DNA of 64,000 nt, from NCBI RefSeq assembly GCF_000005505.3, contig NC_016134.3, positions 21,218,584 to 21,282,583 on the forward strand, written 5' to 3'. Each line of letters starts with the position of its first letter. Positions within the stretch are counted from its first letter, which is position 1. Origin of the DNA: Brachypodium distachyon (taxonomy: Eukaryota > Streptophyta > Magnoliopsida > Poales > Poaceae). The notes under the pieces were generated by a model that ran no database searches, had not been told where the DNA came from, and saw nothing but the letters and a program-made list of their open reading frames with translations. This document shows, piece after piece, positions 1-59,300 of this stretch. Made by a program: the position numbers and the translations under genes.

Positions 1-1250
1 ACAACATATTTGCAAAGACAATTAGACTATGTTCATGATAATTAGTTCAAGCTAATCAAATTACTTATGAACTCCCACGAAAATCAACATCCCTCGGGTT
101 GTTTAGTGACACATGATCCAAATCCACTACACCAAGTCCGATCATCACGTGAGATGGAGTAGCTTCAATGGCGAACATCAACATGTTGATCATATCATTC
201 ATATGACTCATGTTTAACCTTTTGGTTCCTTGTGTTCCGAGGCCATGTCTGTACATGCTAGGCTCGTCAAGTTAACCAAAGTATTTCTGCATGTGTAAAA
301 CTGGCTTACACCCATTGTATGTGAACGTAGAGTTTATAACACTCGATCATCACGTGGTGCTTCAAAACGATGAACTTTTGCAACGGTGCATACTAAGGGA
401 GAACACATTATTATCTTGATATTAATAATGAGGGATCAACTTATAATGCTACCGTCGTCAACTAAGCAAAATAAGATGCATAAAAGGGATAAACATCACA
501 TGCATAAATAATGTGACATGATATGGCCTTTCTTCATGTGCCTTTGATCTCCATCTCCAAAGCACGAGCATGATCTCCATCATCACCAGCCTGTCGCCTA
601 GGTCCTCGGGCGTCAAGTATAGTTGCCTCCACCAACTATTGCTACTACAACTATTGCTACTACTAGCGATAAAGTAAAGCAATTGCATGGCGATAAAAAC
701 ATTGACACGAAGGTCATACAATAATTAATGAGACAACCTACGGCTCCTGCCGGTTGCCAAACTCATCGACATGCAAGTCGTGAAATATTACAAAACATGA
801 TCATCTCATACATCAAATATATCATATCATATCTTGGCCATACCACATCGCATGCCCCTGCAAAAACAAGTTAGACGCTTCTACTTTGTTGTTGCATGTT
901 TTACGTGGCTTTAGGGGCTGCACTAAAAGAACCGTTCTTACTTACGCAAAAGTCACAACGGTGATATACAAATTGCTTATTAACCATATAGGCCTCCCAT
1001 TGCAAATCAGATTTCAACTATAGTGGGAGAGACAGACACCCACTAGCCGCATATGCAATACAAGTTGCATGTCAATTGTGGAACCGGTCTCTTGTGCGAT
1101 GACAAGTAAGGTTGGTCCGAGCCGTTTCATCCCACTATCCCGCAAAATCTGAAGTGCACAAAGAGGTAGCAACATGAACATCAACGCCCACAACCAAGTT
1201 GTGTTCTACTCGTACAAAACATCTACGCATAGATTTAGCTCTGATACCAT
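1..1250 (-). mobile_element. Internal 5' leader of an Angela/BARE-type Copia element (cut by window edge)
   Basis: This sequence lies directly inside the LTR at 1251-3022 and next to a tRNA-Met-type primer-binding site, so on the minus strand it is the region downstream of the 5' LTR. No gag or pol reading frame is present. The longest minus ORFs (63 and 87 codons) match no domain I recognise. Either this is the long untranslated leader of an autonomous element, or the element is one of the non-autonomous Angela-like derivatives. The second LTR and the target duplication lie outside the window. Confidence 0.75.
1238..1249 (-). promoter_or_regulatory. Primer-binding site, tRNA-iMet type
   Basis: On the minus strand this reads TGGTATCAGAGC, the standard initiator-Met primer-binding site of plant Copia elements. 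It sits one base inside the LTR boundary, which fixes the orientation of the element. Confidence 0.9.
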
Positions 1251-9713: not shown

Positions 9714-10690
9714 CTAGCACGCCACCCAAACCGGGACATAAACTCCCTGGTGATCCGCTCTAGTCGCTTGGCGCCAGACTCCATCGGTTCCTTGTGCTGC
9801 ACCTTGTGGCAATGCCCATAATCGCAGCCAATTGGTACATAAGAGCAAAACCTGCATACATGATCGAGTGCATTTTCTTTTTATAAAAACAATGTCATTA
9901 CGGCATAACCAAATAGACCAGAAAACTGCCGCCGCCCCTACTAAAATGAGAGGACGCAAAGTCTTGTCAACCCCCTGCAACCATGCCCCAAAAATATGGG
10001 CCATATTATTTGGAGGCGAAATATTAAATGCCAAATGAATTGTTGTCCACATAAGTCTACCCATTGCACAATCAAAAAAAGATGTTGAATCGATTCGTGC
10101 TCAGAACAGAAGGCACAACGTGTATCCCCTTGCCAACTTCGTTTGAGCAGATTATCCTTAGTAAGAATGACCCCCTTACAAAGGAACCAAAGAAAAACTT
10201 TTATTTTGAGTGGAAAATTGAGTCGCCAAAGAAGTCTCGATCTAACTCGAACTCAGGAATCCATAAGAGCTGAATACATTGATTTAACTGAAAAAATCCC
10301 ACTAGGAAGAAGACTCCAATGAAAAGAGTCTGGCTCTGTCGACAATGTAACAGACGCGATAGAGTCAACAATGGCATTCCAAGCCTCACGATGATGTCCT
10401 AACAAGGACCGCCGAAAATCAACATTCAACATAGTTGCTCCAAGAACTGAAGCCACCGAGACATGCTTGTTCCGCACAATATTAAACAAACGTGGGTACT
10501 TGTTGCATAAAGGCATGTCCCCAATCCACGTGTCCTCCCAAAAACGGACCAATTCACCATTACCAACCTTAAACTCGCCAAATTGAAGAAAAGTGTTTTT
10601 GACCCACATTAGCCCCTTCCAGAAATGGGAATCCGTAGGACGACATTTAACTAGGGAAAGAGGTATTTGATACGTAAAAGCGATTGCCAA
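9714..10690 (-). pseudogene. LINE ORF2 C-terminal zf-RVT region (broken)
   Basis: Two reading frames (10690-10253 and 10064-9714) correspond to the region downstream of plant LINE RTs. It contains the GNGELVRFWEDTWIG segment that precedes the zinc-binding domain and the W-SIWLCRND segment near the C-terminus. The frames are separated by about 190 bp with breaks. Confidence 0.75.
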
Positions 10691-12289
10691 ACACCATCCT
10701 CAGTCAGTTTAAACAACCATTTGCTCAGAAGACACTGGTTCTTAGCCTCAAGGTCCACTATGCCAAGACCTCCTTGATCTCGAGGTTGGCACAAAATACA
10801 CCACTTCGCTAACCTATATTTCTTTTTGTGCTGGTCAGATTGCCAAAAAAAACGAGATCTATAAAAATCCAGTCGTTTCCTGACCCCTTTTGGAATTTCT
10901 AAGAAGGACAACATGAAAATAGGGAGGCTACTCAAGACAGAGTTAATGAGTACCAAACGACTCCCATACAAAAGATTGTTGGAACGCCAACTGCTCAGTC
11001 GTTTCTCAAATTGGTCTTCTATACATTTCCAATCTCGATTGCGAAGCTTACGATAATGGATAGGAATGCCTAGGTATTTAAAGGGGAAAGAACCCACTTC
11101 GCAGCCAAACAACCTAGTATAATCATCTTCAAAATCTTTCGCATTACCAAAACAGTACAACTCACTTTTATGAAAATTATTTTTTAGCCCTGAGAGTTGC
11201 TCGAACACACAAAGGATAAGTTTTAAGTTTACTGCCTTAGCCAAATCATGATCCAAAAAAAGGATCGTATCATCCGCATACTGAAGGATTGACAACCCAT
11301 TGTCTACTAAATGTGGGATAACACCAGCGACCAGACGCTCAGCTTTGGCTCTATTAACGAGAGTGGCCAGCATATCAGCGACAGAGTTAAAAATAATTGG
11401 GGATAAAGGTTCCCTTGCCGCACTCCCTTGTTTGTCTGAAAAAAAGGGCCAACGTTATCATTTACCTTAATCCCAACACTACCCTTTTTAACAAAATTTT
11501 CAACCCAGGTGCACCACACCGAGGAGAAGCCTTTTAGCTTTAAAGTTTGTGGCAAAAAAGGCCATCTTACTTTGTCATTAGCTTTTTCAAAATCTATTTT
11601 AAGAATAACCCCATCAAGCTTTTGAGAGTGCATCTCATGGATGGTTTCGTGAAGAATAACGACCCCCTCCATGATGTACCGTCCTGGCAAAAATGCCGTC
11701 TGAGTGGGTTGAATAACGTTGAGCGCTACTGCTGTAACACGATTTTTTGCCACCTTCGTGAAAATTTTAAAGCTCACATTGAGGAGACAAATGGGACGAT
11801 ACTGCTGAATTCTAGTGGCCTCAGACCCTTTCGGCAACAGCGTGATAATCCAAAATTGAGCCTATGAAGAGGCAAGATGGCCTTATGAAAATCTGCAAAG
11901 GGTGCAAGGAGGTCCTCTTTAATAACCTCCCAAAAGGTCTGATAAAACTCAGTTGGAAAGCTGTTTGGGCCTGGGGATTTATTGTGCTCCATTTGAAAAA
12001 TCACATCGCGCACCTCGTCCTCCGAGAATTCTGCCGTTAAAATAGCGTTTTCAACCGGAGACACCTGGGTAATGTCATCCCTCCTAGACTCATCTAATGA
12101 TACATGGCATTCCTCGGGAGGCCCAAACAAATTTTTATAATACGAAGTAATATAGGACTTGAGAGCTTCCTCCCCCTCAATGGTGCCCTCATCCTGCTCA
12201 AGTTTAAAAAATTTCTTATTACGATGACGACCATTCGCAACAAGGTGAAAATATTTAGTATTGCTATCACCTTCTTTCACGTCTTGCAC
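10651..12289 (-). pseudogene. LINE ORF2 reverse transcriptase (broken)
   Basis: Three overlapping frames (12289-11774, 11837-11307, 11373-10651) together cover the RT. The segment YRPICLLNVSFKI and the catalytic YADD box (11269-11280) are typical of plant L1-type RTs. The motif usually reading EKAYDKV has Asn in place of Tyr, and the GVRQGD-type motif is also altered. Together with the frameshifts this shows loss of function. Confidence 0.88.
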
Positions 12290-14792: not shown

Positions 14793-15503
14793 TGTCGTAG
14801 CCCGGGGCGTAGACACCGGGGGTGAGCGGCACCCCCTTTTAGGTTCAGCATAGGGCGTCGGGGATCGTTTCGGCGATCGCCGGCGAAGCCAATGTCAAGC
14901 GTGAGGATGCACACAATCGTTTTTACCCAAGTTCGGGCCACCCTGAGGTGTAAAACCCTACGTCTTACTTCAGCGTTCTTATTAGCCAATGAACAAGGGT
15001 TTACAGGTTGCCGGGGGAGTTCCCAGGCGTTCTCTCCTTTTCTGCTAAGAGCTACTTGCTATTTCTGGCCAAAACTAGTAGAAAACCGAACCCAACCCCT
15101 TGACCGTTGGCAATGGTCCTCCTTTTATACTCAAGGGGATACCACGGGTGCCTTGGTGCATGGGTGACAAGTGGCGAGCAAAGAACTAGGGCAGCTTGCC
15201 CTCGGTGTGCTGGCTTGCATGCATGATGAGTAGTCCTGCAGCTAGGGCGCTACGTGCCTAGAATTCACACCGGACCAGTCACTGTAGGCTGACTGGATGG
15301 TGAATCCCCTTTCTGTCGGAGCGCCTAGGCAGGAATTCTCTCGCTGCCCTCCAGGGCAACCCCCGCAGCCCGGCTAGCCCTGCCGGGCTGGTGACTTGCC
15401 GGGCAGCTTGTGCGGTGCTGCCCGGGGTGCGATCCTTCCGGGGAGCAAGCGAGGTGGCCCACGCGTCATGCGGCGGTGGTACCCGGGTGCCACTGGTGCG
15501 ACA
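14793..15503 (-). mobile_element. Solo LTR of the Tat-type Gypsy family, inserted in Copia RT
   Basis: A 711-bp LTR begins TGTCGTAGCCCGGGGCG and ends GTGCGACA. It is flanked by identical TGTTC duplications (14788-14792 and 15504-15508). It aligns in inverted orientation with the 5' LTR at 53696-54595. With no internal sequence left, it is a product of LTR-LTR recombination after insertion into the older Copia element. Confidence 0.93.
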
Positions 15504-15508
15504 TGTTC

Positions 15509-15838
15509 TATTTGTAATCCAAGGCAAAATTTGGTCTTCCAAGATCTTTCATCTCAAATTCCCTTTTCAAGCAATCCATTGCCTCGGAGGGTCCTTGAGA
15601 TGTAACAATCAGATTTACATCATCAACATATACAACTATTATCACAAATTCAGCTCCGGATCTTTTTTTGAATATACATGAACAAATAGAATCATTTTTG
15701 TACCCTTTTTCGCCAAATATTCACTGAGACGATTATACCAAATTCGTCCAGATTGTTTTAGTCCATATAGTGACTTATTCAATTTGATTGAATATTGTTC
15801 TCGAGAACCTGCCTCAGGCAGTTTAATTTGATAATATA
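15509..15838 (-). pseudogene. Copia RT catalytic segment
   Basis: Read on the minus strand, this stretch continues the Copia RT and contains the YVDD catalytic box (15619-15630) and the SLYGLKQS-type segment upstream. It is stranded between the solo LTR on the left and the viral block on the right. The protein text joins up with the RT fragment at 28448-28860, which shows that 15839-28429 is an insertion. Small frame disruptions occur near 15665-15675. Confidence 0.88.
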
Positions 15839-15839
15839 C

Positions 15840-16107
15840 TTAAAGAATACCAAAAAATTGCAGAAAAAACTATAGTTTGAATAATAAAATTGATATAGTT
15901 CTGCATAAGCTAGAAGAAGCCAAAACAAAACAAAGTATAGTTTGTAAGAATAACGATTACATTAAAGAAGAAGTGTTATCCATTGGAAAAAGCATAGGAC
16001 ACTGTCTAAATAAAAATAAAGACTCTTTACCAAGCACTGGAACAAGACAAGATATAACTGAAATTAAAAGACTGGTACAAGAGGTAAAAACTTTGATCCT
16101 CTCGTAA
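15840..16107 (+). pseudogene. Pararetrovirus ORF I end and ORF II-like small ORF
   Basis: The first 41 bases read as the C-terminal end of an upstream frame that stops with TGA at 15878-15880. A 76-codon frame then runs from 15877 to 16107 and overlaps that stop as TTGA. In rice tungro bacilliform virus, ORFs I and II overlap as ATGA, so this looks like the same junction with the ATG lost. The small product is Lys/Glu-rich and probably helical, in keeping with the coiled-coil virion-associated role of ORF II in this virus group. The functional assignment rests on position only. Confidence 0.7.
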
Positions 16108-16110
16108 TTT

Positions 16111-17603
16111 GTATGACTGAATATAGCTAAGCATTAAAAGAAGTAGAAAAATATTTAACGCCGTCAATTGGCTTTTCTGACCACGATTCTCCAAAGGAAG
16201 ACTCAAAAATAATAATAAGACAAAAAATACAATCCTGCAGTTATTAATTCAGATTTTAGATAAGCTAAATAGTGAACAAAGTAACAAAGATATTGTGTTA
16301 GCATCATCTGAAATAAGTGCATCACCAAGGAATATTAATTCAGAAAAATGGACTTATCTAAAAGCCTCATTAGAAGAGACAGAAACCTCCAATTAATAAG
16401 ACAAGATTCAAAGCCGCTAACAATGATGCATAGGATGTCATGCAGCAAGGCTGATGACATCGATAGTTTAGAAGAAGTTATAGAGTTAGAAAGAGATCTG
16501 GAAAGGTATAAAAAAGATACATTGAGAAAAATAAAACCGCAGCAGGTATGCCACATGGGTTTGTTTGAAGGGAGAGGTGGATTATATAGAATATCTAGAG
16601 AAGTAGAGTTAAGTGTGTTAACACATCCAGTAGAATTAAGAATTGTGAGTAAGAATATTGAAAAAATGAACTCAAATATTGTGGGTACAAATATATCCAT
16701 CAAGGTATGTATATCATAGGAGTTAAAGGAATGACAAGAAAGAAATTAGGAGCAAAGGTGTTAATAACATTATTAGACAAAAGATGGGGATCAGTAGATA
16801 AAGCTTCATTAGGCTTTATGAAAGGAGATATGAATGAAAACATATTAATAACCTATATAGCTCCAGACTTAATGATGCCTGTGAAGGAATTTATTGATAA
16901 GATGAGTCTTGGGTTCCAAACTAAAGGTTATGAAGAATTTAAAGGTACAAATCTATTAGTAAGTATAGAGTTTATAGGAAGACTAACTAATAAAAGCAAC
17001 TCTAAATATAGAGTAAATGTAGACGATGTAATTGAAAGCATGCAATCAAAAGGTATAAAATTCATGAGTCCTCTTAAAATCAGTTCTGAAGAAAGAGCTG
17101 GAGAAGAGTGGAAAATAAGCGAGCTAATTGAAAAGAAGGAATTAAAGCAACCTAATAACTACATAAGTTACCAAAACTGTGAAGGAACCAGCAGCATTAG
17201 ATTCACAAATAATAAATCTGCAACCATAGATGATACTGAATCTTTTGCTTCTGAATCAGAGTTTAATGAAAATAAAAATAGTGGCGTGACTGAATACATG
17301 GAAAAGTCAGATTTACACGATGAAATAATTCATTATGAAGGAAAATTGAAACATATAGAATGGGAATATAATAATTCTATGACAAAAGATTGGCCTAAGA
17401 TAAGAGAAAAGGAATTGTTTTTCATTAGAGAGATTGCAAGACTTAAAAGATTAAAAAATGAGAAAAAGCCTGCCATTGGTAGTTCAATCAAACTAAATAA
17501 GAACATAACTATAGAAGAAAATAAGGTTGGTAGTAGTAAAACCAATAATACAGACCAGAGCTATAAAAATAAAGATATAGGTGAAGAGGAGCAAGGGACA
17601 TAA
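16111..17603 (+). pseudogene. Pararetrovirus ORF III start and movement-protein region (broken)
   Basis: An ATG at 16111 is followed within six codons by a stop, and 16130-16340 carries further breaks. From 16348 to 16719 and, after a frameshift near 16705, from 16707 to 17603 the sequence resembles the caulimovirid movement-protein domain. That family moves virus particles between plant cells through plasmodesmata. The region after about 17100 is acidic and Lys-rich and probably disordered. The assignment rests on the conserved core around 16560-17090 and its position ahead of the coat region. Confidence 0.75.
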
Positions 17604-18540
17604 ATAATAAAATACTAACTGAAAGTTTTGAAGAAGAAGAAGAATTAATAAAAGATATGCTTAAAGAAGATGAAGTTTTTGATGGATCTGAAGAAAATAG
17701 TGATTTTATAAACTCTCTAGGTAATGTAGGAATACACAATTTAGAAAATGCAATGGAAGCTATGGAAGTAGAAATGAATAACAAAAGAAGAAGGACATAC
17801 GGTGATACTTCAGTAAAAAGAGAAGGAGAGAGAGAAAGACCAAGAAGGGCAGCCGGAACATGGCCTCCAGAAAAAGACGATTTCCAACCAACATACATCT
17901 CTGAACAATATAGATATATGGGTACTAAAAGAAGAGATTTTGAAAAACCAGTACAATTTCAAAATTATAAGAATGAGGGTGCAATATTAAATCTAGCAGC
18001 CCATGACCCAATAGACTGGCCTAATATAATTAGCATATGGAAAGGTTTAATAGTTCAAAAATATATACAAAATCAGCATAGCATAGGCAATAATGTGGAA
18101 GATATGATAACCTATCTTGAAACCTTTTTAGGAGAATCTGTAAAAGTTTTATGGGAACAATGGATAGAAACATTTCCTAGTCAATATGAAGAATTAAAAG
18201 CAGCTGGAAGTAATCCCCATAACTTCGCTAATATTATATCACTTATAGTCATAGCAGAAGATCCAGATTTAGGAGATACCACATTGCAGAATGAGAGGTT
18301 GCGAGAAATAGAAAAATTAACATTAACAAGTTGGAAAGGTATAAAAGAATTCCCTCAGCATTATTTATATAATGCTACCACCGCTAAACAAGGTTTTAAT
18401 AAAGAGGTAGTAGAAAGATATTTTAACAAATTACCTGACCCTTTAGGATCTATAATATTCGAGGAATATAAGAAACAAAAGAGGGTTCGGTTTCAAATAT
18501 ATCTCAAGCCATTAATTTTGTTTTTAAGCAACTAAGAAAG
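17588..18540 (+). pseudogene. Pararetrovirus coat-protein region (broken)
   Basis: A frame shifted relative to the movement-protein frame is open from about 17588 to 18535. It has an acidic N-terminal part, an arginine/lysine-rich stretch around 17780-17850 and a core matching the coat-protein position in ORF III. Frame breaks flank it near 17600 and 18500, so it is not joined to its neighbours. In this virus group the coat protein is cut from the polyprotein by the viral protease. Confidence 0.75.
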
Positions 18541-19446
18541 GTATGTATGAGTATACAAGCCCAAAGATCTATGAAAAAAGCAGACTACAATTTTTGCAAT
18601 AATATTGTTCAAATACCATTAACATACGGAGAAAATAGGCATAAAAATAAAAAATATTACAAACCCCAGAGGAGAGATAATAGGAACTTTAGGACAAACA
18701 AAAGATATTTTCTAAGAAGATCTGATAATAGAGCTCCTTATCTACATAAGAGAAATGTAAGAAGATATGATCCTAGAAAAACTTATGATAAAACATGTAG
18801 GTGTTTTATATGTAATTCACCAAATCACCTAAGTAAAACTTGTCCTAATAAAGATCAGAAAATGTACTCTAGTAAATATGAAGAGTAAGAAATAGTGTTA
18901 ATTATAGATAGTGTTAATGAAAATATCCTAGTATGCGATGAAGAAATAAAAGATGATGAGTCGATATACTCTATCATAGAAACAGATGAAGTAGAAAATG
19001 ATACTTTAAAAGAAGAATCAAGTGAAGATAAAATAGACCTAATAGATGATTTAGCCGGTTTAAAAATTGAAATGATGAATCAAGTAGATTGTGAACACGA
19101 TTGGATTAGAGGTAAAGGAGATTATAATATAAAATGTGCATTTTGTATATACTACCCAAGCCAAGAAAATAGGTCTACATGTAGTTTATGCTTAAGACAA
19201 GCTTGTGCCTCTTGTTTAAAGGCTAGAAATCAAGCCTGGAGACAAGAAATAAATTGTGAACCAGAAGAACGAATCCTATTTAGTAGAGTTAGAAATTTAG
19301 AGAATATAATAAATAAACTAGAAGCAGATCTAGAAGAAGTAAAATATAATTTAGAAAATAATAGTAGTGGTAATCAATATCAAGAGGATAATATGGACAA
19401 AAATATTGAATTAAAGGATCAAATGGTGACAGGCTTATCCAACTAA
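18541..19446 (+). pseudogene. Pararetrovirus zinc knuckle and second Cys-rich motif region
   Basis: One frame is open except for an in-frame TAA at 18886-18888. The first part is very basic and carries a CCHC zinc knuckle (C-x2-C-x4-H-x4-C, 18802-18843), the nucleic-acid-binding end of the coat protein. The second part carries a pattern C-x2-C-x11-C-x2-C-x4-C-x2-C at 19135-19215. This second motif distinguishes badnaviruses and tungroviruses from other caulimovirids. A helical, acidic stretch follows up to the stop at 19446. Confidence 0.85.
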
Positions 19447-21529
19447 AGGACGCCAATACTAGTTTTGGAAACAAATATATAGTACGTTTACCATTTAAGG
19501 AGGTTTTGGGAATAAGAATCCCAGTCAAAATAGTATTAAAACCAAATATTTCCTATAAAATATTAGCACTATTAGACACAGGGTGCACAAAGAACATCAT
19601 TCATGACAAGTATTTTGCGAGATGCCCTGAAATAGTTAAAACTATAGACAACGATAAAGCTGAAGTCTCCACAGACATGTCAGGAATACAAAAGATTCAT
19701 AATCAATTGCCCTATAATATTGAATCTTACATAAATGGAACAAAATATATTATAGATGAAATTACAATTAGAGATTTGTCAGTAATAAAGGATGACATGA
19801 TACTGGGTTTAAGATTTTTACAACAATCCTTACAAACCACTATTATACATGAAGAAGGAGTTACATTCATCCCATATCAAGATAACGTTCCATACATATC
19901 TGAGATTATAAGACAGAGAAAATCCATACAAAATGCAGAAATATCTAATATAGATGAAGAATATAGTGCCGATGAAGACCCTCTTGAAATCTGCAAAGAA
20001 GAAGAGCTTAGTAATGCCGTAGAAGAATACCATATTGAAAATACATGTACAGAATGTATAGGTTTACAATCATTCTCAGCAAATTGGTATAGAGATATAA
20101 AAACCAAGAAAGATATAGACAAAATAGTGCAAAAATTAGAAGACATACAAATCATTGGAGAAGTACCAATGAAACATTGGGATAAGAACTCCATAGTCTG
20201 CAAGATAAATATTATCAACCCTGATTACATAATCAAGTCAGGACCAATAGAAGCTACTCCCAAGGATATAGAAGAATTCAAAATGCATATTGAAGAGTTA
20301 TTGAAATTAAAAGCCATCAGGGAGAGCAGAAGCCCTCATAGGTCAGCTGCCTTTATAGTTAGGAATCACGTTGAGGAAGTCAGGAAAAATTCTAGAACGG
20401 TTATTAATTACAAGAGACTTAATGATAATGCAATAGACGATGCATTCAATATATCCAATAAGCAAGAATGGATTAATAGAATACAAGGAAGCAAATATTT
20501 TTCTAAGTTTGATTTAAAGGCCGGGTTTTGGCAAGTAAAAATGGTTGAGGAATCTATTCGTTGGACAGCATTTACATGCCCTCAAGGTCATTATGAATGG
20601 CTGGTAATGCCCTTAGGATTAAAAAATGCGCCTGCATTATTTCAAAGGAAGATGCAAAATATATTTAATGAGAATCAAGCATTTGTATTAGTATATGTAG
20701 ATGATTTATTGGTTTTCTCAAAATCATACAAGGAGCATATTGCTCACCTTGAAGTCTTCTTTAGAAAGGTAGAATAAAACGGTCTAATCTTATCTAAAAA
20801 GAAAATGGAGATTTGTAAAGAGAAAATAAATTTTCTCGGGCATGAGATAGGAGAAGGAAAAATACACCTGCTAAAGCATATTGCTAAGAAAATTTTACAA
20901 TTTCCTGATTCTATGAATGACAAAAAGGTCCCACAACAATTCTTAGGAATTGTAAATTATGCGAGAAATTATATAGATAATCTAGCAAAACTAGCTAGAC
21001 CTTTATATGCTAAATTAAAAAAGAATGGGCAAAGGTATTTTAATTCTGAGGACATAAAGTTAGTCAAGGCCATAAAAGAAAAGGTCAAAAATTTGAAACC
21101 TTTAGAATTGCCATTAGAAGATTATTACTTTATAATCAAAACCGATGCATCTAAAGTAGGTTGGGGTGCTATATTAAAGCAAAAACCTAATAAGTACTCT
21201 CCAAAGGCAGAAGAAAAGATATGTAGGTATGCCTCAGGAAGTAATTAAAAACAGTAAATAATATTGATAGAGAAATCCTCGCGGTAGTCCATGCAATAAA
21301 CGTGTTTAGGCTATACTTGGGATTTAAAGAATTTACAGTACGCACTGGTTGTGAAGCAATATGTAGATACTATAATCAAATCAATAGTAAGAAAAGTTCT
21401 ACTAGAAGATGGGTTTTATTTGAAGATATCATAACTGGAAATGGATATAAAGTTGTTTTTGAGCATATTAAGGGAAAAGATAATTGTTTACCTAACATAT
21501 TCTCCCGTTCATCAATTTTGCAGGAATGA
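19447..21529 (+). pseudogene. Pararetrovirus protease, reverse transcriptase and RNase H (broken)
   Basis: Frame one is open from about 19470 to 20777 and contains a retropepsin DTG (19575-19583) and the RT with its YVDD box (20694-20705). An in-frame TAA at 20775-20777 interrupts the RT. The same frame then runs on to 21248 and includes the RNase H catalytic Asp near 21144. A frameshift at about 21240-21250 leads to the last frame, which ends at 21527-21529. There is no integrase after RNase H, which separates this from Gypsy elements. The enzyme would reverse-transcribe the pregenomic RNA, but the breaks rule out function here. Confidence 0.93.
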
Positions 21530-22387
21530 AGCATGGATTGCTTCCCAATGGGGTGGAAGTATTTACCTTTGGAAATGAAAACACACTGAAAATATTTCCC
21601 CCGGATACATTTAAATTCAAATCTAAGGGACATACTGCCCTCGATGAAATTCAAAAAATGCATACTTGACAATTTCTGGTTCCAATATAATAATAAAAGA
21701 GAAGAAAAAGGCTATATGCTATCAATTCTGAATAGTCTAGCAGAATATTTCAATATGATGAACAAGAAGTTACCAATATTAGCAAATATTGCAGTGCAAG
21801 AATATAAGCCATTATATGTACTGTTTGATGGAATCAAACCTAGAATATATATGACCTTTGAAGAAATAATAAAAGAAAAGCTAGACGCAAGGAAAACGAA
21901 AGAGGACATAACATGGAAGAAATATGTTGATGTCAATGAAGCCTTGAGTAAAACAAGAAGTATGATAGGTGAAAATTATTACATAGAACCGAAAGCCGAA
22001 GAATATATCCAGAAGATCAAAGGTGAAGAAATTTTTTCTTCATCAAATACGAAGAATGTAAAAGAAGAAACATTAATATTAAAGAATGTAAAAGAAGAAT
22101 CTCCTAAATATCAAACATACAAAGACTGCCTAATAAAAGGAGTGGATCCTTTAGATTCTGAATATATAGATCTGAAGAAAAACGAAGTATTAGAAGATAC
22201 CTCAAAAATATGGAAAGAAGAGTTAAAAGAAGAAATTTTAAAAGAATTACGACTTGAACTCATGCAAAAATTTGAAAAAATGAAGAAACAATATGATTTA
22301 AAAATTGAACTAAATCTTTCAAAATTTGATTTTAATCTTTCAGAAGATGATCACATGGATATTGCAGGCCAGAAACCAGAATTTTAA
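21526..22387 (+). pseudogene. Pararetrovirus ORF IV-like region
   Basis: An ATG at 21526-21528 overlaps the pol stop as ATGA. After 44 codons a frameshift in 21644-21668 moves the reading to a frame that stays open to 22387 (247 codons). The product is Lys/Glu-rich with a probable coiled coil near the C-terminus and a short internal duplication (AAGAATGTAAAAGAAGAA at about 22051 and 22082). A fourth ORF downstream of pol is a hallmark of rice tungro bacilliform virus. I see no enzymatic motif. Confidence 0.75.
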
Positions 22388-22502
22388 TTGATATTACTAT
22401 CAATTATTCGGGCGGGGAGGACATATACACCACACCTCCGAACATATACACCTATACCCCAATAGTTGATAGAATATAATTTGATTTGAATATGATTGAA
22501 AA

Positions 22503-22533
<31 letters not shown>

Positions 22534-23025
22534 GTAAATAATAATTAAAAATATAAAATCTTAAGAGCCATCGTTAGCATGTATTAGGCATATAAGACCC
22601 ATCATCAGCATACAAGATCACAAATGCATGGGATCCTATGATTTATGGTGTGCAGACGAAAAATAGCCAAGGAAGCAGACAATAAGGCTGCAGTGTGTCG
22701 TAAACACTATCATTAAAACGCAAGACTACTCCCAAGATGAAGGAAGCCACGTTTGCATGCAACCAAAGAGTGAAGTGGCAGCCAAAAGACCCCTTATCAC
22801 CATGCATGCATGCATCCAAAGGCTATAAAAGAAGCTTAGGACCTATAAAGGAGGTGCATCATGGACATGGAGAAAGGTGAGGTAAATAATGCATGAGAGC
22901 ACTATTTGAGCCAGCCATGGTGCCTATATAAGGAGGCTCTTTGCAGCATTGGAGGACACACAACCATCGAGCACAACACAAGCTTTCAGAGCAGCAAGTA
23001 GTTCAAGGCAGCTAGCCAGAAAACT
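22388..23025 (+). promoter_or_regulatory. Pararetrovirus intergenic region and promoter, plus-strand copy
   Basis: This noncoding stretch follows ORF IV. It contains an (AAT)n microsatellite at about 22506-22533 and a TATA box (TATATAAG, 22925-22932) followed by a GC-richer leader start. It is the counterpart, in opposite orientation, of 23952-24576. The similarity breaks off at about 23025, after which about 754 bases of leader present in the other arm are missing. Confidence 0.85.
22925..22932 (+). promoter_or_regulatory. TATA box of the pararetroviral pregenomic promoter
   Basis: TATATAAG lies in the intergenic region upstream of a leader-like sequence. The same box occurs in inverted orientation at about 24049-24056 in the second arm, so the two promoters point toward each other. 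Confidence 0.8.
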
Positions 23026-23040
23026 ATTCTTGGGGAAAAT

Positions 23041-23197
23041 ACACATAGTCAGCTAAATACAGTTGTTGATTTAATATATAATTTCTTTATATCTTGGGGA
23101 AAAAGGCAAATTTTTTGTCTAGATTATCTTGCCTTTTTCCCCAAGATATAAAGAAATTATATATTAAATCAACAACTGTATTTAGCTGATTATGTGT
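23041..23197. repeat. Near-perfect 69-bp inverted repeat with 19-nt loop
   Basis: The arm 23041-23109 pairs with 23129-23197, with one obvious mismatch. Both arms are the start of the viral ORF I coding region in opposite orientations. Just left, 23026-23037 (TCTTGGGGAAAA) repeats a piece of the left stem (about 23092-23103), as expected of a template-switch filler at a join. This hairpin is the centre of the larger viral inverted repeat. Confidence 0.93.
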
Positions 23198-23326
23198 AGA
23201 ATGCCAATTATGCTCTTCAGAGGGATTTACTCTGCACCTTATATCAATATTTTCTTTAGTATGTATAACTTTACCTGCGCTAACTTCTAAGTCTACATAC
23301 TTTAATCTTTCAATGATTATAATCTA

Positions 23327-23338
23327 GCTCTAATACCA
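23327..23338 (-). promoter_or_regulatory. Pararetrovirus tRNA-Met primer-binding site
   Basis: On the minus strand this reads TGGTATTAGAGC, one base off the TGGTATCAGAGC consensus used by caulimovirids to prime minus-strand DNA synthesis. It lies between the long leader and the ORF I-like coding start. Confidence 0.85.
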
Positions 23339-23910
23339 CCAATATGCAAAATTAATTAATATTAGATACGTTAATATTCAGATTATTTAGGCTAATATTA
23401 GGTTATATTAAATATTTTAATATTATGATTATCTTTTGCAGGATCTTAAGAGGCTGGTGAGGCCAACGGAACTACCGACGGTTTTCGCAGCAATGTAATA
23501 ATCCTACTCAGTACTCACCGTATTTATTACTATATTGCTTCAGGAGTAGCTAAGTTTATTTTCCTAGGCATCTTTAATCAGGTTTATATGGGTGATTTCT
23601 TATCGTCTTCCCAGGCAGTTCCACCCGAAGGGAACACTTCTCTACGGTTACAAGGTTTTCATTTCAACGCCATACACTCGGCTTAACAGAGAACTACACG
23701 CAGAGGTTTCTCCTATAGGATCCCTAGCATAAGCACCCACCCATATAAACATGCTAAAAAGATCGAGGAAAAAACTAAACTACTTCATTTCACAATATAG
23801 CTTACATACGGTTTTCCCTTTCGGAAACCCCCGAAAGGTTCACACAAAGATAAAGAAATTACCTTACTACCTTCCCAGTCTTATGTTACAAATGCCTTGA
23901 TTACACAGGC

Positions 23911-23916
23911 TTTATT
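23911..23916 (-). terminator. Probable pararetroviral poly(A) signal
   Basis: AATAAA on the minus strand lies about 140 bases downstream of the inverted TATA box. In pararetroviruses a poly(A) signal shortly after the cap site is bypassed on the first pass and used on the second, giving terminally redundant RNA. The role here is inferred from position. Confidence 0.55.
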
Positions 23917-24580
23917 ACAGTGGGAAGTGGTACTACTACTACTAGAGAGCAGATAGTTTTCTGGCTAGCTGCCCTGAACTACTTGCTGCTCTGAAGGCTT
24001 GTGTTGTGCTTGATGGTTGTGTGTCCTCCAATGCTGCAAAGAGCCTCCTTATATAGGCAACATGGCTGGCTCAAATAATGCTCCCATGCATTATTTATCT
24101 TACCTTTCTCCATGTACATGATGCACCTCCTTTATAGGTCCTAGGTTTCTTTTATAATCTTTGGATGCATGCATACATGGTGATAAGGGGTCTTTTGGCT
24201 GCCACTTCACTCTTTGGTTGCATACGAACGTGGCTTCTTTCATCTTGGGAGTAGTCTTGCGCTTAAATGATAGTGTCTACGACACAATGCAGCCTTATTG
24301 TCTGCTTCCTTGGCTATTTTTCGTCTACACACCATAAATCATAGGATCCCATGCATTTGTGATCTTGTATGCTGATGATGGGTCTTATATGCCTAATACA
24401 TGTTAGCGATGGCTCTTAAGATTTAATATTTTTAATTATTATTTACTATTATTATTTTTTATTTTTTTTCAGTTTTCAATCATATTCAAATCAAATTATA
24501 TTCTATCAACTATTGGGGTATAGGTGTATATGTTCGGAGGTGTGGTGTATATGTCCTCCCGTCCGAGCATTAAAATTAGC

Positions 24581-27500
24581 ACCGAGCGACCCCCGCCCCG
24601 CACCAAGTCTTCTGCATGCGACGTAACCATATTACGTTGGTTGATTCCAATAGTATGAAAGCACGAGCGCACGTCCCGTTCAGTTTTTCTGCATGCAGCG
24701 TAAGAAATTTACGTCCAGGCTACCCGGCTTTGAAATGAGCGCCCGCTTGTGCTTGCACGAGACGTAAGAAAGTTAGGGTCGATCGAGTGGTTCAGAAGGC
24801 TCTAGTGCTTGCTGTGTAAAATTATTTCGCCGGTGCAGATTCTCATGTGACACAACAAGATTATACTTGCATGCACTGCCCCTTTTATACTAACTAGCCT
24901 CATACTAGGCAGTGTGTACTGCCTTGAGCGAAAGAACTGGCTTGATTAACAAAATAGTGGCAAACAAAATATTTCAAGCATCACTATAGAGGTCAAATTG
25001 AGCAATCCGGGAGCATAATGGAGTGAGACAATATTTTTTTCACAGCAGCAACGAGTACAAGTAAAACGCATGCCTCACTTAACTGCTCAATCACTACAAC
25101 AACAGAAGACAAAAGGTATACACATGATTGTAACTATGCAAGCCCTTTCAGACTCATCATTCCTCCTTCGGCAACACTTCTCTCCATTTGAAACAATGAC
25201 TGCCTGCAAAATTGCCCAATATCCTGCAAATGATAGCATAACACAATGTTACCCAACTCTGTGTTTGCAAGATATTTTTTAAAACTACATCAATATAATT
25301 GAGAAATGCCGCACCTATAAGTTAGTATTTGCACATTCTTGCTTGAGTATCTGTCACGAGACTTGCCGAAACAACAAGACATTAGGTTTCGGATTATATC
25401 ATCATCATTAACGGCAATCATATCTTAGACTCTAAGCATGTCTCGTTTCATCAAACAAAGAGTCAAAGGCTACAATATATATTTTGTCAAACTCACATCT
25501 GATAGTCCAGTGGGCTTTGAATCTTGAACCATACACAAAGTACTTTTGTCCAACCTCCTAACCTGCAGCGTTTGGAATACAAGTAAACAAGTTCTCACCG
25601 GAACAAAATTAACTTCAAGTTTTATTATCCTCAGAATTTCATCAACGTTAAACAAGAGTTAGCATAGCATACCTTACACCATGCTCACAAGTAAAATCAG
25701 TGGAAGTTTATGTCTCTGTAGCTCTCTTAATTTCAAGAATAGAGTAGTCTCAGCTCTGAGCTGTCAGTTTTGACACACGCATCCACAAAGAAAAAAGTCA
25801 AAGTCCAATTTTTCCAAATAGATTAGTACAGATTGTAATTTTGGAACACAAAATTAATCGTAGTTCCAAATACGAAAACAATTATTCAATTAGCAATAAA
25901 TCAACACACAAACTATATATGTACACAATCAAAAACTTATGACACACCTGGTTTACCGGCGATCGCCACACTGCGGCGGCTAATTCCACACGAGCTGCTG
26001 GCGAGGGGAATATCACAACAGTGGGGAGGAGCCGGCCGACGAGGTAGGACTGGGCTGAGCGGCAGACTGGGCGCCGAGGTCGCCGATTAGCCCAACGATG
26101 CGAGTTGTGGGCCGGCGTCTGCGTCGACCTCAGCATCCACCATTGTTCTTCCAAATCCAGCATCATTCCCGCCCTTCACGCCATCGAGCTTGGACCACCT
26201 CGCCCCATCTCGCGTCGCCAGCGCTGACCCTGAAAGAAAATCGGAGCAAGCCCTGTCAACAGAAGTACTACCTTACATGCTATTTATAAACAACTCTTCT
26301 TGACAATAGCACCAGCATGTTCTTGAAACAGATTAGTTAAAAATAATGGTCAGCCACAGCAGCAAAATCAAACTGATAACATTCATGGGCACAACAATCC
26401 GATTTCTCCTAACTTACCAGATTGAATTATGCAACAACTAAGATTGCATAAGTTTTCAGGTCACAAATCTTGTCAGCTTTAGACTTTAGTACACCATTAC
26501 CACCACCATGATAACTAGAAGGCCACCTATGCATTGCAGGTTGAATATCAGAGGAACTGAACATAGGTCCTTACAATATTGCACAAAACGCACATATATT
26601 ACAGCTGAGTTTGTCATGTTCCGGCCATAATTTGAACTAGAAGGCCATATATTACACACATGTTCTGGCCATGTGTGTGTAGTTACAATTTTTTATAGTT
26701 TGAACTCAACAACAACTACTTTCTACACTACCGAAACAATAGACATTTTCTGCATTACTGAAAATCTGCACCTTATGAAAATCTGCATTAGCTTTGTTCA
26801 GTTGGATTGAACAGCAGAAAATGAACCTCTTGAATTCCAGCAGGAGCCTTTTATCGAACAAACCAAATACGAAAAGAAAGGAAAAAAGGAAAGTAGCTGT
26901 ATATCACAAACATAAATGATGTTGGATATACTTCCTTGGGGTCAGCAAGCACACCAACCGTTCCATCGAATACGTCTTCAGACCAGACAATAAAATCTTG
27001 TAAAATTGGTCAGTGTTTCAAGCTTGCAGAGAAGTAAGTAAAGAACAAATCTGCAGTATACCAAAAAAAAAAACATTCTCACGAGCATTCCATCGAACAG
27101 TTGCAAGTCAACTTGATCCAACATGATATTTCTCATGGCTGATGCAATTAACTACGCCATATGTGATCGCATCAAAAAATTTAATCCCAAGACAAGGCAA
27201 AACACGAGCATACAGAGTCCATCGATTCATGCATTTTGCATTGGGCGGCAGCATCGACTTACAGGGTGGAGTCTGCAGAAGCAGCGGCAAGTACGACGGG
27301 ATTGGCCGATGTCGGTGGCCACGATGGCAGCGAGGTTACCGTCGCGGCCGGGGGAGGAGCTGCCGGTGAGGAGGCATCAGAGACGAGCATGTGCGTGTCA
27401 TCGGCGAAGCGCCTGGCCCTGGACGGTCACGTCGTGCGGAGCCAAGGGGCGCCGCCAATCGGGGAGAAGTGGAGGCAGAGGTGGGATCCGCCTTTGCGTT

Positions 27501-28447: not shown

Positions 28448-28860
28448 AGTATCAAGTGAACCATGCAAGTATGCTGTAATAACATCCATTAGATGTAATT
28501 TAAGATTTTTTTTTATTGCCAGACTAATAAGATATCTAAAAGTCGTTGCATCCATCACAGGAGAGTATGTTTTTTCATAATCAATTCCCGGTCTTTGGGA
28601 GAATCCTTGGGCAACTAATGGTGCCTTGTATCTCATAATTTCCCTTTCTCATTTCGCTTTCGCACAAAGACCCACTTGTAACCAACAGGTTTCATACAAC
28701 AAGTGTGCGGGTTATGGGTCCGAAGACTTCTCTTTTTGTAAGAGAATTTAATTCTGCTTGAATTGCATCTTTCCATCTTGGCCAATCTTGTCTTTTCTTG
28801 CATTCCTCGACCGATCGAGGTTCATGATCCTTAGTTTCATCCATAATTTCTAGCGCTAGA
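28448..28860 (-). pseudogene. Copia RT N-terminal segment
   Basis: The minus frame 28636-28448 has the segments YKAPLVAQGFSQRPGIDYE and TYSPVMDATTFRYL, standard for the start of Copia RTs, and breaks off at the (TA)n tract. Upstream (28860-28640) the sequence still encodes the preceding region in a broken frame. Its continuation is at 15838 on the other side of the insertion. Confidence 0.9.
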
Positions 28861-30717
28861 TGATGACTTTGTCACGGTTCCAATTTTTTCCTGACATGAC
28901 ATAGTTTAATGAGATCTCATTTTCTAAAGAATCAGGTACCTTTGTCTCTTCTATAGCAATAGCATTTGTCATGTCTACAATCTCCTCGGGAGATTTTTCT
29001 TGGTTTATTATTTCCTCGGATTGACCATCTTGATCCTTTGCTCCCTTTCTTTTCCGAGGATTTTTATCTTTGGAACCCAATGGTCTACCTCGTTTCATGT
29101 TAGGTTTTGATTCATTTGCGGTAGACGGTTGCCCATGTTGGACATCAATTCTTTCAGGAGCATTAGCAGCTGGAATATATGACTTTGTCACTCTTTTTAA
29201 GTCTGTGAAAGCGTCTGGCAAATTATTCGCTAAGCTTTGTAAATGAATGATCCTTTGAACTTCTTGCTCACATAGGTTTGTACGAGGATCAAAGTGAGAT
29301 AGTGATAATTCATTCCAGCTTATTTCTTTATTTAGCTGCTTATCCTCTCCCCCTGTTGTTGGGAAATTTGACTCATCAAAATGACAATCAGCAAATCTTA
29401 CTGTAAATACATCTCCTGTTGATGGTTCAAGATATTTTATTATAGAAGGGGACTCATATCCAACATATATTCCCAACCTTCTTTGAGGTCCCATCTGTGT
29501 GCCCTTTGGTGGAGCAATTGGGACATACACCGCACATCCAAAGATTCTTAGATGGGAAATATTAGCCTCTTTGCCAAAAACCAACTGTACAGGGGAAGAA
29601 CTATGGTAACTTGTTTGGCCTGATGCGAATTAATGCTGCTGCATGCAAAATAGCATGTCCCCATGCTGACATTGGGAGTTTTGACTTCGCTATTAATTGG
29701 AGACGTTTAATAAATGTCTCAGCACGGCCATTCTATGTATGAACATGTGCAACCGGATGTTCAAGACTTAGTTCAATCGGCATGCAGTACTCATTGAAGC
29801 TTTTTGATGTAAATTCACCGGCATTATCCAGGCACATAGTTTTGATCGGATTATCTGGAAACTGAGCTCTTACTTGATTATTTGAGCCAACAGCCGCGCA
29901 AATGCTAGATTGCGAGTTGATAGTAAGGAGACGTGAGACCATCTAGTTGATGCATCAATTAAAACCATAAAATATCTAAATGGCCCACTTGGTGGATGAA
30001 TTGGTCCACATATATCTCCTTGTATGCGCTCCAGAAAAGCGAGGGACTGATGTCCAATTTTAGCCGGTGATGGGCGCATAATCAGTTTCCCTTGAGAGCA
30101 TGCGATGCATGGGAAGTCATTCGATTGGAGAACCTTTTCGTTCTTTAGTTCATGCCCGCATGAACTATTAATAATTTTTCACATCATTACTGATCGGGAT
30201 GGCCTAGCCGGTCATGCAATATAATAAAATTGCTATGGTTGGTGAACTTCGGTTCCACCACCATATATGACTCATTCCTTTTGAGACTTGTATAGTATAA
30301 ACCAGAAGATAATTCTGGTAATTTCTCCAACACATATTTTTTCCCTGATGACATCTTTGCAATGTTGAGGTACTCCACATTACCCTCACACATTGTCTCT
30401 ATATGATAGCCATTTCGGCGTATATCTTTAAAGCTCAACAAATTTCTTTGAGACTTTGGGGAATAAAGTGCTTCATTTATGTCTACCTTTGTCCCACAAG
30501 GTAACATTATTGTGGCTCTTCCTGAGCCCTCTATCAATTTAGCACTTCTAGATATTGTATTAACAACTGCCTCATGTACCACAAGGTACGAAAAATATAC
30601 TTTACTATTTATTATGGTATGCGTTGTTGCACTGTCTATAAGACATATATCTTCTTCTTTCGGAAGATCTTGAGCTAAAGAGTTTTCCATATATACTTCA
30701 AAAGAAACATATACCAA
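28856..30717 (-). pseudogene. Copia protease and integrase (broken)
   Basis: The frame 30717-30187 holds the protease (DSATTHTI) and the pre-integrase His region (HDRLGHP). The frames 30079-29870 and 29942-29733 hold the integrase core with catalytic Asp residues in the segments IQGDICGPI and CLDNAGEFTS. The frame 29584-28856 holds the integrase C-terminus (FGKEANISHLRIFGC) and an acidic linker before RT. Breaks include an in-frame TAG near 29733 and frameshifts near 29590 and 30180. Integrase would insert the cDNA; this copy is inactive. Confidence 0.9.
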
Positions 30718-57397: not shown

Positions 57398-58104
57398 GAA
57401 AGCACCCTCATCACTTTCCTCCGGGAGAATGCCGACGTGTTAGCTTGGGAACCGTCGGACCTCCCCAGAGTCCCTAGGGAGGTGATTGAGCATCGACTCG
57501 CGGTGCGCCCGAACGCCCGCCCCGTAGTAGTACCGAAGGGGGAGCGCAAAGATTTCATGAAGCAAGAAGTGGACAAGCTTAAAGCTGCGGGGGCTATCAT
57601 TGAAGTACTGTACCCCACTTGGTTAGCTAACCCTGTAGTAGTACCGAAGGGGGAGGATAAACTTCGCATGTGTGTAGATTTTACTGATCTTAACCGTGCG
57701 TGTCCTAACGATCCTTTTCCTGTACCTCGCATTGATCAAATAGTAGATTCCACTGCCGGTTGCGATTCGCTGTGTTTTTTGGATGCGTTTTCCGGCTACC
57801 ATCAAATTAAGATGGCAGCCGAAGACGAAGAAAAAACGGCGTTCATCACCCCGGTTGGCTGCTACTGCTACACGTGCATGCCTTTCGGGTTGTAGAACGC
57901 GGGCTCAACATTCCAGCATGCGTTACGCGAGTGTTTGGGATCCCAGCTAGGCCGAAACATGAGGCCTACATGGATGATATCGTCATCAAATCGAAACGCG
58001 GGGACTCGCAGATTGATGACCTGCGGGAAACGTTTGACAACCTCCGCAGGATCAAGCTCAAACTGAACCCTGAGAAATGCACCTTTGGTGTGGACTCGGG
58101 CTAG
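57398..58104 (+). pseudogene. Gypsy reverse transcriptase (broken)
   Basis: The first part (57437-57895) has RMCVDFTDLNRACPND and FLDAFSGYHQIKM. It stops at TAG 57893-57895, just after MPFGL, and a frameshift then leads to the frame with the YMDD catalytic box (57967-57978). A further shift near 58090 leads to RNase H. Confidence 0.92.
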
Positions 58105-59300
58105 CTTCGGTTTCACACAGGGGATTCAAGCCAACCCAAAGAAGATAGAAGTTATCGAGAAAATGGGGGCTCCCTGCAGGGTGAAGAACGTGCAGCACCG
58201 CAACGGCTGCGTAGCTGCGCTGGGGCGCTTCATCTCCAGGCTGGGCGAACGCGCCCTGCCTTTCTTCAAGGTGATGAAGAGGAAGGTCCCGATCGATTGG
58301 ACCTCCGAGCCTGAGGCGGCGTTCCAAGATCTCAAGCAGTACCTGAAGTCGCCGCCCGTCCTTGTTGCCCCCAAGCCGGGCGAGCCGCTGCTACTCTACC
58401 TAGCCGCGACTGACCAAGTGGTTAGCTCGGTCCTAGTTGTCGAAAGAGAAGAAGACCTCCCGGGGGCTGAGCCCCTGGGGCCGGGGGTTGAGCCAGCCCC
58501 GGCAACCGCCCAGGACCCGGGAACCGCCATCGAGTCAGCGACGTCAGCACCGCGCAAGCGGCTCGTGCAGCACCCGGTGTACTTCGTCAGCACGGTGCTG
58601 CGCGACGCCCGCACGCGGTACCCGAAAGTGCAGAAGCTCTTGCTGGGGATTCTACTTGCATCACGCAAGCTGCGCCATTACTTTCAGGCGCACCGTGTGT
58701 CGGTGGTGTCGGGATTCTACCTCGAGCGGGCCCTCACCAACCGTGAAGCCACCGGAAGGGTGGCCGAGTGGAGGATGGAGTTGTCGGAGTTCGACCTACA
58801 CTTCACCAACACCAAGAGCATCAAGAGTGCGGCTCTGGCCGATTTCGTTGCGGAGTGGACTTCGACGGGCATAGAAGAAGAAGAGCCGGAGACCAGTCTG
58901 CCCGACAGGATGGACGAAGGCCATTGGATCCTGTACTTTGACGGTGCATTCAGCCTACAGGGAGCAGGCGCCGGAGTCGTCGTCGAGTCATCCACAGGAG
59001 ACCAGCTGAAGTTCGCCATCGAGCTCGACTTCCCCAACTCTACCAACAACACGGCCGAGTACGAAGGGTTGCTTGCCGGGTTGCGGGTGGCGATCGCCCT
59101 GGTATCAAGCGCCTGGTTGTTCGCGGGGATTCCCAACTCGTGATCAACTAGGTTAACAAGGACTACGACTGCCCGCTGATGGCAGCGTATGTGGATGAGG
59201 TCCACAAGCTGGAACGCAAGTTCAAGGGCCTACGATTCGAGCACGTCAAGCGCAGGGATAACTTCGCGGCTGACGAGCTGTCCAAATTGGTAGCAGAGCG
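58085..59300 (+). pseudogene. Gypsy RT connection and RNase H (broken)
   Basis: A 352-codon frame (58085-59143) covers the connection domain, a Pro-rich insertion (about 58450-58560) and an RNase H with YFDGAFSLQGAGAG and NNTAEYEGLLAGLR. A frameshift near 59100-59145 leads to the RNase H end (HVKRRDNFAADELSKL) in the next frame. This plant-type RNase H after an older one is typical of Tat elements. Confidence 0.88.

What the first reader, a model, noticed from the sequence alone, without database searches (positions are those of the whole stretch)
15839..24580. Fossil tungrovirus-like pararetrovirus in a probable Triticeae genome
The block has caulimovirid movement, coat, protease, RT and RNase H regions, no integrase and no LTRs, and an extra ORF after pol. 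That fourth ORF is characteristic of rice tungro bacilliform virus, whose known endogenous relatives were described mainly from rice. If the host is Triticeae, this may be a separate lineage with a wider grass host range. All coding regions are broken by at least eight stops or frameshifts.
Basis: partly seen in the sequence, partly recalled or inferred. Interest (0 to 1): 0.88.

Follow-up and report, generated by a model that had tools for sequence, protein, structure and literature searches.

The report
Broken orendovirus fossil in Brachypodium genome
[quoted passage not shown] what it adds is detail on how such viral DNA is captured by chromosomes.

Summary
The host assembly (271.3 Mb, five large contigs) fits Brachypodium distachyon, tribe Brachypodieae, not Triticeae. 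RT places the copy in a clade whose named members are all grasses (Avena, Aegilops tauschii, rice). This matches the proposed genus Orendovirus, for which 'Brachypodium distachyon virus' and 'Aegilops tauschii virus' are in print, so it is not a separate new lineage. RTBV itself could not be put in the tree. Three features were missed. (1) The locus carries a second, inverted copy of the intergenic region (IGR); matching breakpoints suggest one element with an internal inversion. (2) At least 51 IGR copies lie in the genome; IGR ends cluster at the tRNA-Met primer site (19 of 32), mostly against dinucleotide repeats, and IGRs flanking one element are near-identical, LTR-like. (3) The ORF4 family contains an RNase H1/viroplasmin (Cauli_VI) domain, a motif noted once for rice ORFz and reported absent from RTBV. 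Junction targeting was partly known from rice.

The parts
15500..15826 (-). Host Copia (RVT_2) fragment; left host flank
   Evidence: Six copies in the same genome match nearly this whole stretch at 92-95%; the five that were fetched run on past the 15826 point with other sequence. RVT_2.
15827..16107 (+). 3' part of viral ORF1, no Met codon; cut off at 15827 by the junction
   Evidence: Open frame without M; in 8 of 11 other copies examined the frame runs 164-165 codons or more from the primer-site side without M.
16114..16396 (+). ORF2, broken in this copy
   Evidence: 6 of 11 other copies examined have a 109-codon open frame here, two more 94 codons; the window does not.
16350..17603 (+). 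ORF3: movement protein region
   Evidence: PF01107 2.5e-5.
17585..18888 (+). ORF3: coat protein region with CCHC knuckle
   Evidence: PF22909 5.6e-17 and 9.2e-10; zf-CCHC 0.0052, below cut-off.
18889..19446 (+). ORF3: linker with second Cys-rich stretch
   Evidence: Sequence read; no Pfam family reaching a cut-off.
19563..19823 (+). ORF3: aspartic protease
   Evidence: PF21024 3.9e-4, below its curated cut-off.
20118..20768 (+). ORF3: reverse transcriptase
   Evidence: RVT_1 7.7e-28; tree; 8r0s 6.9e-57.
20778..21529 (+). ORF3: RNase H
   Evidence: PF17919 4.8e-8, PF17917 2.0e-6.
21590..22387 (+). ORF4, 265 aa open; about the first 19 codons out of frame against relatives
   Evidence: 105 proteins at E<=0.1; 55 rows in the genome.
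21812..21961 (+). ORF4: RNase H1 hybrid-binding / viroplasmin (Cauli_VI) domain
   Evidence: Family-level evidence; place in the window. The window's own ORF4 gave no PF01693 hit.
22396..22421 (+). Left-terminus motif ACTATCAATT (22396) and purine tract GGGCGGGGAGGA (22410-22421), copy A
   Evidence: four other copies begin exactly at this motif.
22388..23027 (+). IGR copy A, 5' part only; TATATAAG at 22925
23040..23198 (.). Fold-back of the ORF1 5' part (70-nt arms, 99%)
   Evidence: arms map to the stretch behind the primer site in other copies.
23127..23326 (-). ORF1 5' part of inverted copy B, open without Met
23327..23338 (-). tRNA-Met primer site, one mismatch, copy B
   Evidence: by motif alone within chance for the window (6 hits, 3.98 expected), placed by alignment to other copies.
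23339..24566 (-). IGR copy B, near full: TATATAAG at 24055, AATAAA at 23916, leader
24567..25160 (+). Right host flank, a repeat with at least three further copies (94-97%)

Best explanation
The block is one germline-captured, decayed copy of an orendovirus-type caulimovirid in Brachypodium distachyon. The virus had the RTBV-like plan PBS - ORF1 (no AUG) - ORF2 - ORF3 (MP-CP-PR-RT-RH) - ORF4 - IGR, about 8.05-8.08 kb. Viral DNA joined the chromosome without integrase, as filler in double-strand break repair, mostly at dinucleotide repeats. Its ends were often set by the viral strand discontinuities at the tRNA primer site and near the purine tract after ORF4, which leaves an IGR at each end. 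In the window copy the part from ORF1 to the 3' IGR was then, or at capture, inverted with a short fold-back, and the frames decayed over roughly 2-5 million years. Shown: the parts, the family, the junction pattern, the matching breakpoints. Inferred: break repair, use of the discontinuities, the single inversion, the age.
For: Domains. RT in a clade with 100/100 support whose named members are grasses (Avena, Aegilops, rice); host Gypsy outside with 100/100. Family copies: 51 IGR copies of at least 500 bp in 36 places (from, each capped at 40 scored candidates), 40 MP rows, 55 ORF4 rows. Junctions: 19 of 32 PBS-side ends at -2..+8 of the primer site, 11 at exactly +6; 4 of 20 left ends exactly at ACTATCAATT; dinucleotide repeats beside 24 of 32 and 13 of 20, against 111 of 10,238 background positions. 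Six IGR pairs outside the window, each from one element or place, are best partners of each other, 97.3-100% against a mean of 94.5% over all rows. In the window, copy B ends where copy A begins in ORF1, within about 5 nt.
Against: The window pair is not mutual best (93.9% over 625 columns), so two separate viral molecules joined tail to tail cannot be excluded. 13 of 32 PBS-side ends and 16 of 20 left ends lie elsewhere. Junction anchors and offsets were set by hand, junctions to other viral sequence or unclear ones were left out, and the IGR searches are capped. RTBV is absent from the tree.
Confidence: 0.85

Rival explanations
1. Two different viral molecules were captured next to each other in opposite orientation: one from ORF1 to IGR, one from IGR to ORF1.
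For: The IGR arms are only 93.9% identical and are not mutual best partners. 7 of 36 IGR places hold both orientations, so inverted joining is common in the family.
Against: Copy B stops in ORF1 within about 5 nt of where copy A starts, which two independent fragments would match only by accident.
Confidence: 0.3
2. It is a member of Tungrovirus proper.
For: Four-ORF plan, ORF1 without AUG, ORF after pol. A 2018 review (PMC5902531, passages) describes rice orendovirus reconstructions as resembling RTBV ORFs I, III and IV.
Against: RT is 85-87% identical to rice endogenous copies, and Kunii et al. 2004 give 63% RT/RH between those and RTBV. Sukal et al. 2018 report that RTBV ORF4 lacks the TAV domain, which this ORF4 family has.
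Confidence: 0.1
3. It is a Gypsy-type LTR retrotransposon that lost its integrase; the IGRs are its LTRs.
For: In some related elements IGRs at both ends, a primer site right behind the 5' IGR, a purine tract before the 3' IGR, and lone IGRs.
Against: Movement and caulimovirus coat domains. RT away from host Gypsy with 100/100 support. The common ends are ACTATC.. and ..TGGTAT, not TG..CA.
Confidence: 0.02

Closest known systems
Orendovirus (proposed): Brachypodium distachyon virus, Aegilops tauschii virus
   Same: Host species fits; both named as representatives in Diop et al. 2018 (passages seen); RT clade with an Aegilops tauschii protein.
   Different: Their sequences were not at hand, so identity with the published Brachypodium distachyon virus is inferred, not shown.
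Rice eRTBVL / ERTBV (ORF x, y, z)
   Same: RT 85-87%; ORF4 51% to Os08g0437566; ends in the IGR and at discontinuities, AT repeats beside 93% of ends (sections read).
   Different: About 8.05-8.08 kb here in the two elements measured against 7.5 kb; ORF2 frame present here and reported absent in rice.
Rice tungro bacilliform virus (Tungrovirus)
   Same: Order of four ORFs, ORF after pol (RTBV side from papers and recall).
   Different: ORF4 there is reported to lack the TAV domain; no RT comparison was possible.
Dioscorea nummularia-associated virus (Dioscovirus)
   Same: Four ORFs, ORF4 separate from ORF3 with a Cauli_VI domain, IGR of 1247 nt (passages); top BFVD match of the ORF4 model, E 1.7e-3.
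   Different: RT of that virus not compared; found in yam.
Petunia vein clearing virus with quasi terminal repeats
   Same: Terminal repeats noted for an endogenous pararetrovirus (passage).
   Different: Petuvirus; an integrase-like motif is claimed there, none found here.

Membership tests
Caulimoviridae | MP, coat, protease, RT and RNase H domains in this order on one strand | tested here: met
   (protease below cut-off).
Caulimoviridae | RT groups with caulimovirids, outside Gypsy | tested here: met
   45 rows, namely the window, 39 of the 120 listed hits, and 5 host Gypsy RTs.
Caulimoviridae | tRNA-Met primer site | tested here: met
   one mismatch in the window, exact in L030; by motif alone not beyond chance.
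Orendovirus (proposed) | RT clusters with grass endogenous copies | tested here: met
   8 rows, 6 of them named grasses or the window, 2 unnamed; monocot-specific.
Orendovirus (proposed) | Identity with published Brachypodium distachyon virus | not testable with these tools
   Sequence not held.
Tungrovirus | RT branches with RTBV | tested here: inconclusive
   No RTBV sequence reached.
Tungrovirus | Four ORFs with ORF4 after pol | tested here: met
   not exclusive, Dioscovirus shares it.
Tungrovirus | ORF4 homologous to RTBV P4 | tested here: inconclusive
   No RTBV name among 105 sequence hits or in the 120 listed of 182 profile hits.
LTR retrotransposon (Metaviridae) | Integrase | tested here: not met
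   None in 19 pieces.
LTR retrotransposon (Metaviridae) | Target-site duplication | tested here: inconclusive
   None seen by eye in two insertions with non-repeat DNA on both sides (L037/L018, L082/L081); repeats hide it in most others.
Viroplasmin/TAV domain (PF01693) in the ORF4 family | Profile score over Pfam cut-off and matching fold | tested here: met
   2 of 10 members scanned singly pass the cut-off; 16 of 26 match at E<=10; hhalign 1.7e-7; 3bsu as best PDB fold, E 0.051. The window's own ORF4 has no hit.

The most novel reading that the evidence does not exclude
Orendoviruses enter the chromosome as a retrovirus-like linear DNA with two LTR-like IGRs. The ends are fixed by the two priming sites of reverse transcription: the purine tract with its small hairpin on the left and six nucleotides of the tRNA primer site on the right. 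The DNA is caught by break repair at dinucleotide repeats and can later leave solo IGRs. If so, IGR pairs are a molecular clock for integrase-free viral fossils.
Probability: 0.45. Interest if true: 0.6.

Novelty: new member of a known kind. Interest (0 to 1): 0.33.

Why it matters
As a find, the locus is ordinary: one more copy of a grass caulimovirid family in print since 2004 (rice) and 2018 (Brachypodium, Aegilops). It matters for two narrower questions. The Brachypodium copies, some young enough for identical IGR pairs, show at nucleotide level where captured viral DNA began and ended, which makes the open question of how viruses without integrase enter plant chromosomes testable. The ORF4 domain links the fourth protein of this lineage, called unique together with RTBV P4 in a 2018 review, to the transactivator/viroplasmin proteins of other caulimovirids.

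Tried and rejected
Triticeae host: rejected from assembly size and contig lengths with taxonomy. That these are the B. distachyon chromosome lengths is recalled; a 271.9 Mb figure for an assembly of that species is in a table seen.

RTBV in the tree: three scans of viral contigs, with the RT piece, an ORF4 relative and an RT alignment, gave no relative; the protein search leaves out proteins as long as the polyprotein. Not achieved.

ORF4 to RTBV P4 by profile: 182 hits at E up to 1 but only 120 listed, all far stronger than a distant relative would be, so inconclusive.

Solo IGRs as proof of recombination: 24 of 36 places hold a single IGR copy, but several of those sit beside ORFs, and captured strong-stop DNA would look alike.

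Hairpin nick as in rolling-circle replication, from the TT/AC position of the left end: considered, not tested.

TAV domain as a new discovery: rejected. A 2018 paper (PMC6179347, passage seen) notes a TAV motif in rice ORFz. My searches for prior art on the junction pattern were made, on endogenous copies in these hosts, on the domain. Of the papers I saw search listings, outlines, passages or the sections named; none was read whole, and no supplements were opened.

Rows left out before counting: junctions to other viral sequence, rearranged or unclear ones (among them L011, L022, L024, L073, L074, L076, L091, L092 on the primer side and L034, L073, L079, L083, L085, L089, L095 and the window on the left) are not in the 32 and 20. 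In one search one locus of 14 (L032) had no full match and two loci were the same element, leaving the window and 11 others. In one search five copies are present twice among the 36 rows, and only pairs whose IGRs were held were compared (5 of the 14 neighbouring non-window pairs, plus one pair with another IGR between).
Full report
What is there. Open pieces between stops from 15844 to 22387 on the plus strand were scanned one by one, with Copia and flank pieces beside them, 19 in all. They give movement protein, caulimovirus coat domain, a zinc knuckle and a pepsin-like protease (both below cut-off), RT and two RNase H pieces, then a 265-aa ORF4. None matched an integrase. The polyprotein lies over all three frames, with about five frame changes and two in-frame stops by my reading; ORF2 and the first codons of ORF4 are disturbed as well.

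Host. The window is G000:C5:21218584-21282583 in an assembly of 271,293,937 bases and 11 contigs, the large ones 75.07, 59.64, 59.13, 48.59 and 28.63 Mb. I recall these as the chromosome lengths of Brachypodium distachyon; a table in a 2014 paper gives 271,923,306 bp for an assembly of that species (PMC4241990). It belongs to tribe Brachypodieae, not Triticeae.

Family. A tree of 45 RT rows (the window, 39 of the 120 hits listed, five host Gypsy RTs) puts the window with Avena sativa and Aegilops tauschii proteins, a metagenome protein, three rice rows and one unnamed row in one clade (100/100), next to a dicot-containing set (95/91). Rows with two named badnavirus-type proteins form another group (98/99), and host Gypsy RTs fall outside (100/100). 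Orendovirus is the proposed genus for such elements; Diop et al. [quoted passage not shown] A 2023 review (PMC10377300) states that the rice elements are too distant from RTBV for the same genus.

Gene plan. In 11 other copies examined for the 5' region, 8 have an ORF1 frame of 164-165 codons or more without Met starting near the primer site. 6 have a 109-codon ORF2 frame and two more 94 codons. Rice copies were reported to lack ORF2. The unit length is 8,050 and 8,084 bp in two elements. Some copies in this genome still have the polyprotein frame open (4 of 40 MP rows lie in frames of 1737-1738 aa); none is singled out here.

The locus is rearranged. Behind ORF4 stands IGR copy A (to 23027), a 70-nt fold-back, then a nearly full IGR copy B on the minus strand with the primer site at 23338-23327 and the start of ORF1. 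Copy B stops in ORF1 within about 5 nt of the point where copy A starts beside the Copia fragment. Five fetched Copia relatives show the host sequence breaking off at 15826; the right flank is a host repeat breaking off near 24566. The simplest account is one element, its ORF1-to-IGR part inverted, with the 3' half of one IGR lost. Two joined molecules remain possible, since the arms (93.9% over 625 columns) are not each other's nearest kin.

How copies end. IGR searches gave at least 51 copies of 500 bp or more in 36 places, 7 of which hold both orientations (searches each scored 40 of 75-89 candidates). In 32 PBS-side junctions, anchors and offsets set by hand and junctions to other viral sequence left out, 19 lie at -2..+8 of the primer site and 11 at exactly +6; evenly spread ends over 1,240 nt would give 0.3. 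Of 20 left junctions, 4 start exactly at ACTATCAATT, the loop of a short hairpin ahead of the purine tract; the others scatter, several near position 50-60 of the IGR. Dinucleotide repeats adjoin 24 of 32 and 13 of 20, against 111 of 10,238 background positions. Kunii et al. 2004 already reported IGR and discontinuity ends and AT repeats beside 93% of ends in rice, and the 2023 review calls (TA)n flanks frequent. What I did not find in the listings is the exact +6 end and the paired IGRs.

LTR-like pairs. Six pairs of IGRs belonging to one element or place outside the window were compared: four in the same orientation at the two ends of an element, one inverted pair, one pair 13 kb apart in a cluster. 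All six are mutual best partners, at 97.3, 97.7, 98.3, 98.8 and twice 100.0%, against a mean of 94.5% over all rows. Nine further neighbouring pairs were not compared. Virion DNA of caulimovirids has one discontinuity in the minus and one to three in the plus strand at the priming sites. Melting between them with fill-in, or strand displacement as in retroviruses, would yield an IGR at each end. This step is inference. With a recalled grass rate of 1.3e-8 (or 6.5e-9) per site and year, the window pair gives 2.4 (4.9) million years if its IGRs were equal at the start, and the identical pairs less than about 0.1 million years at the faster rate.

Verdict. A confirmed observation, a known kind, a corrected host and a likely corrected genus. 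The lasting interest is in the junctions and the ORF4 domain.

Noticed in passing
P0124, P0125, P0138 (protein ids): ORF4 relatives (57-64% identical) lie on contigs of up to 8,175, 8,191 and 8,084 bases in read or metagenome assemblies, close to the viral unit length; they may be circular episomal genomes of living orendoviruses or merely young repeats. A viral-contig scan with P0125 found no relative.
   Followed up: partly
window 22925 and 24055: The two inverted IGRs each keep a TATATAAG box and face each other, so transcripts from both could pair; 7 of 36 IGR places in the genome hold both orientations.
   Followed up: partly
window 24567-25160: A host repeat flanks the element on the right; another of its few copies lies about 120 bp from a different copy of the same virus family.
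   Followed up: partly
window 10654-11454 (-), 28859-29629 (-), 58067-59140 (+): Other retroelement pieces: weak RVT_1, a retroviral SH3-like domain, and RNase H domains (10 ORFs scanned, 7 without hits).
   Followed up: no
window 1238-1249 (-): An exact TGGTATCAGAGC primer site, possibly of another LTR element.
   Followed up: no
window 15320-15503: A stretch of about 185 bp repeated in at least 29 other places of the genome at 92-97%.
   Followed up: no
P0033: A protein filed as Corynebacterium sp. is 58% identical to this plant-virus RT piece over half of it; probably plant contamination in that assembly.
   Followed up: no
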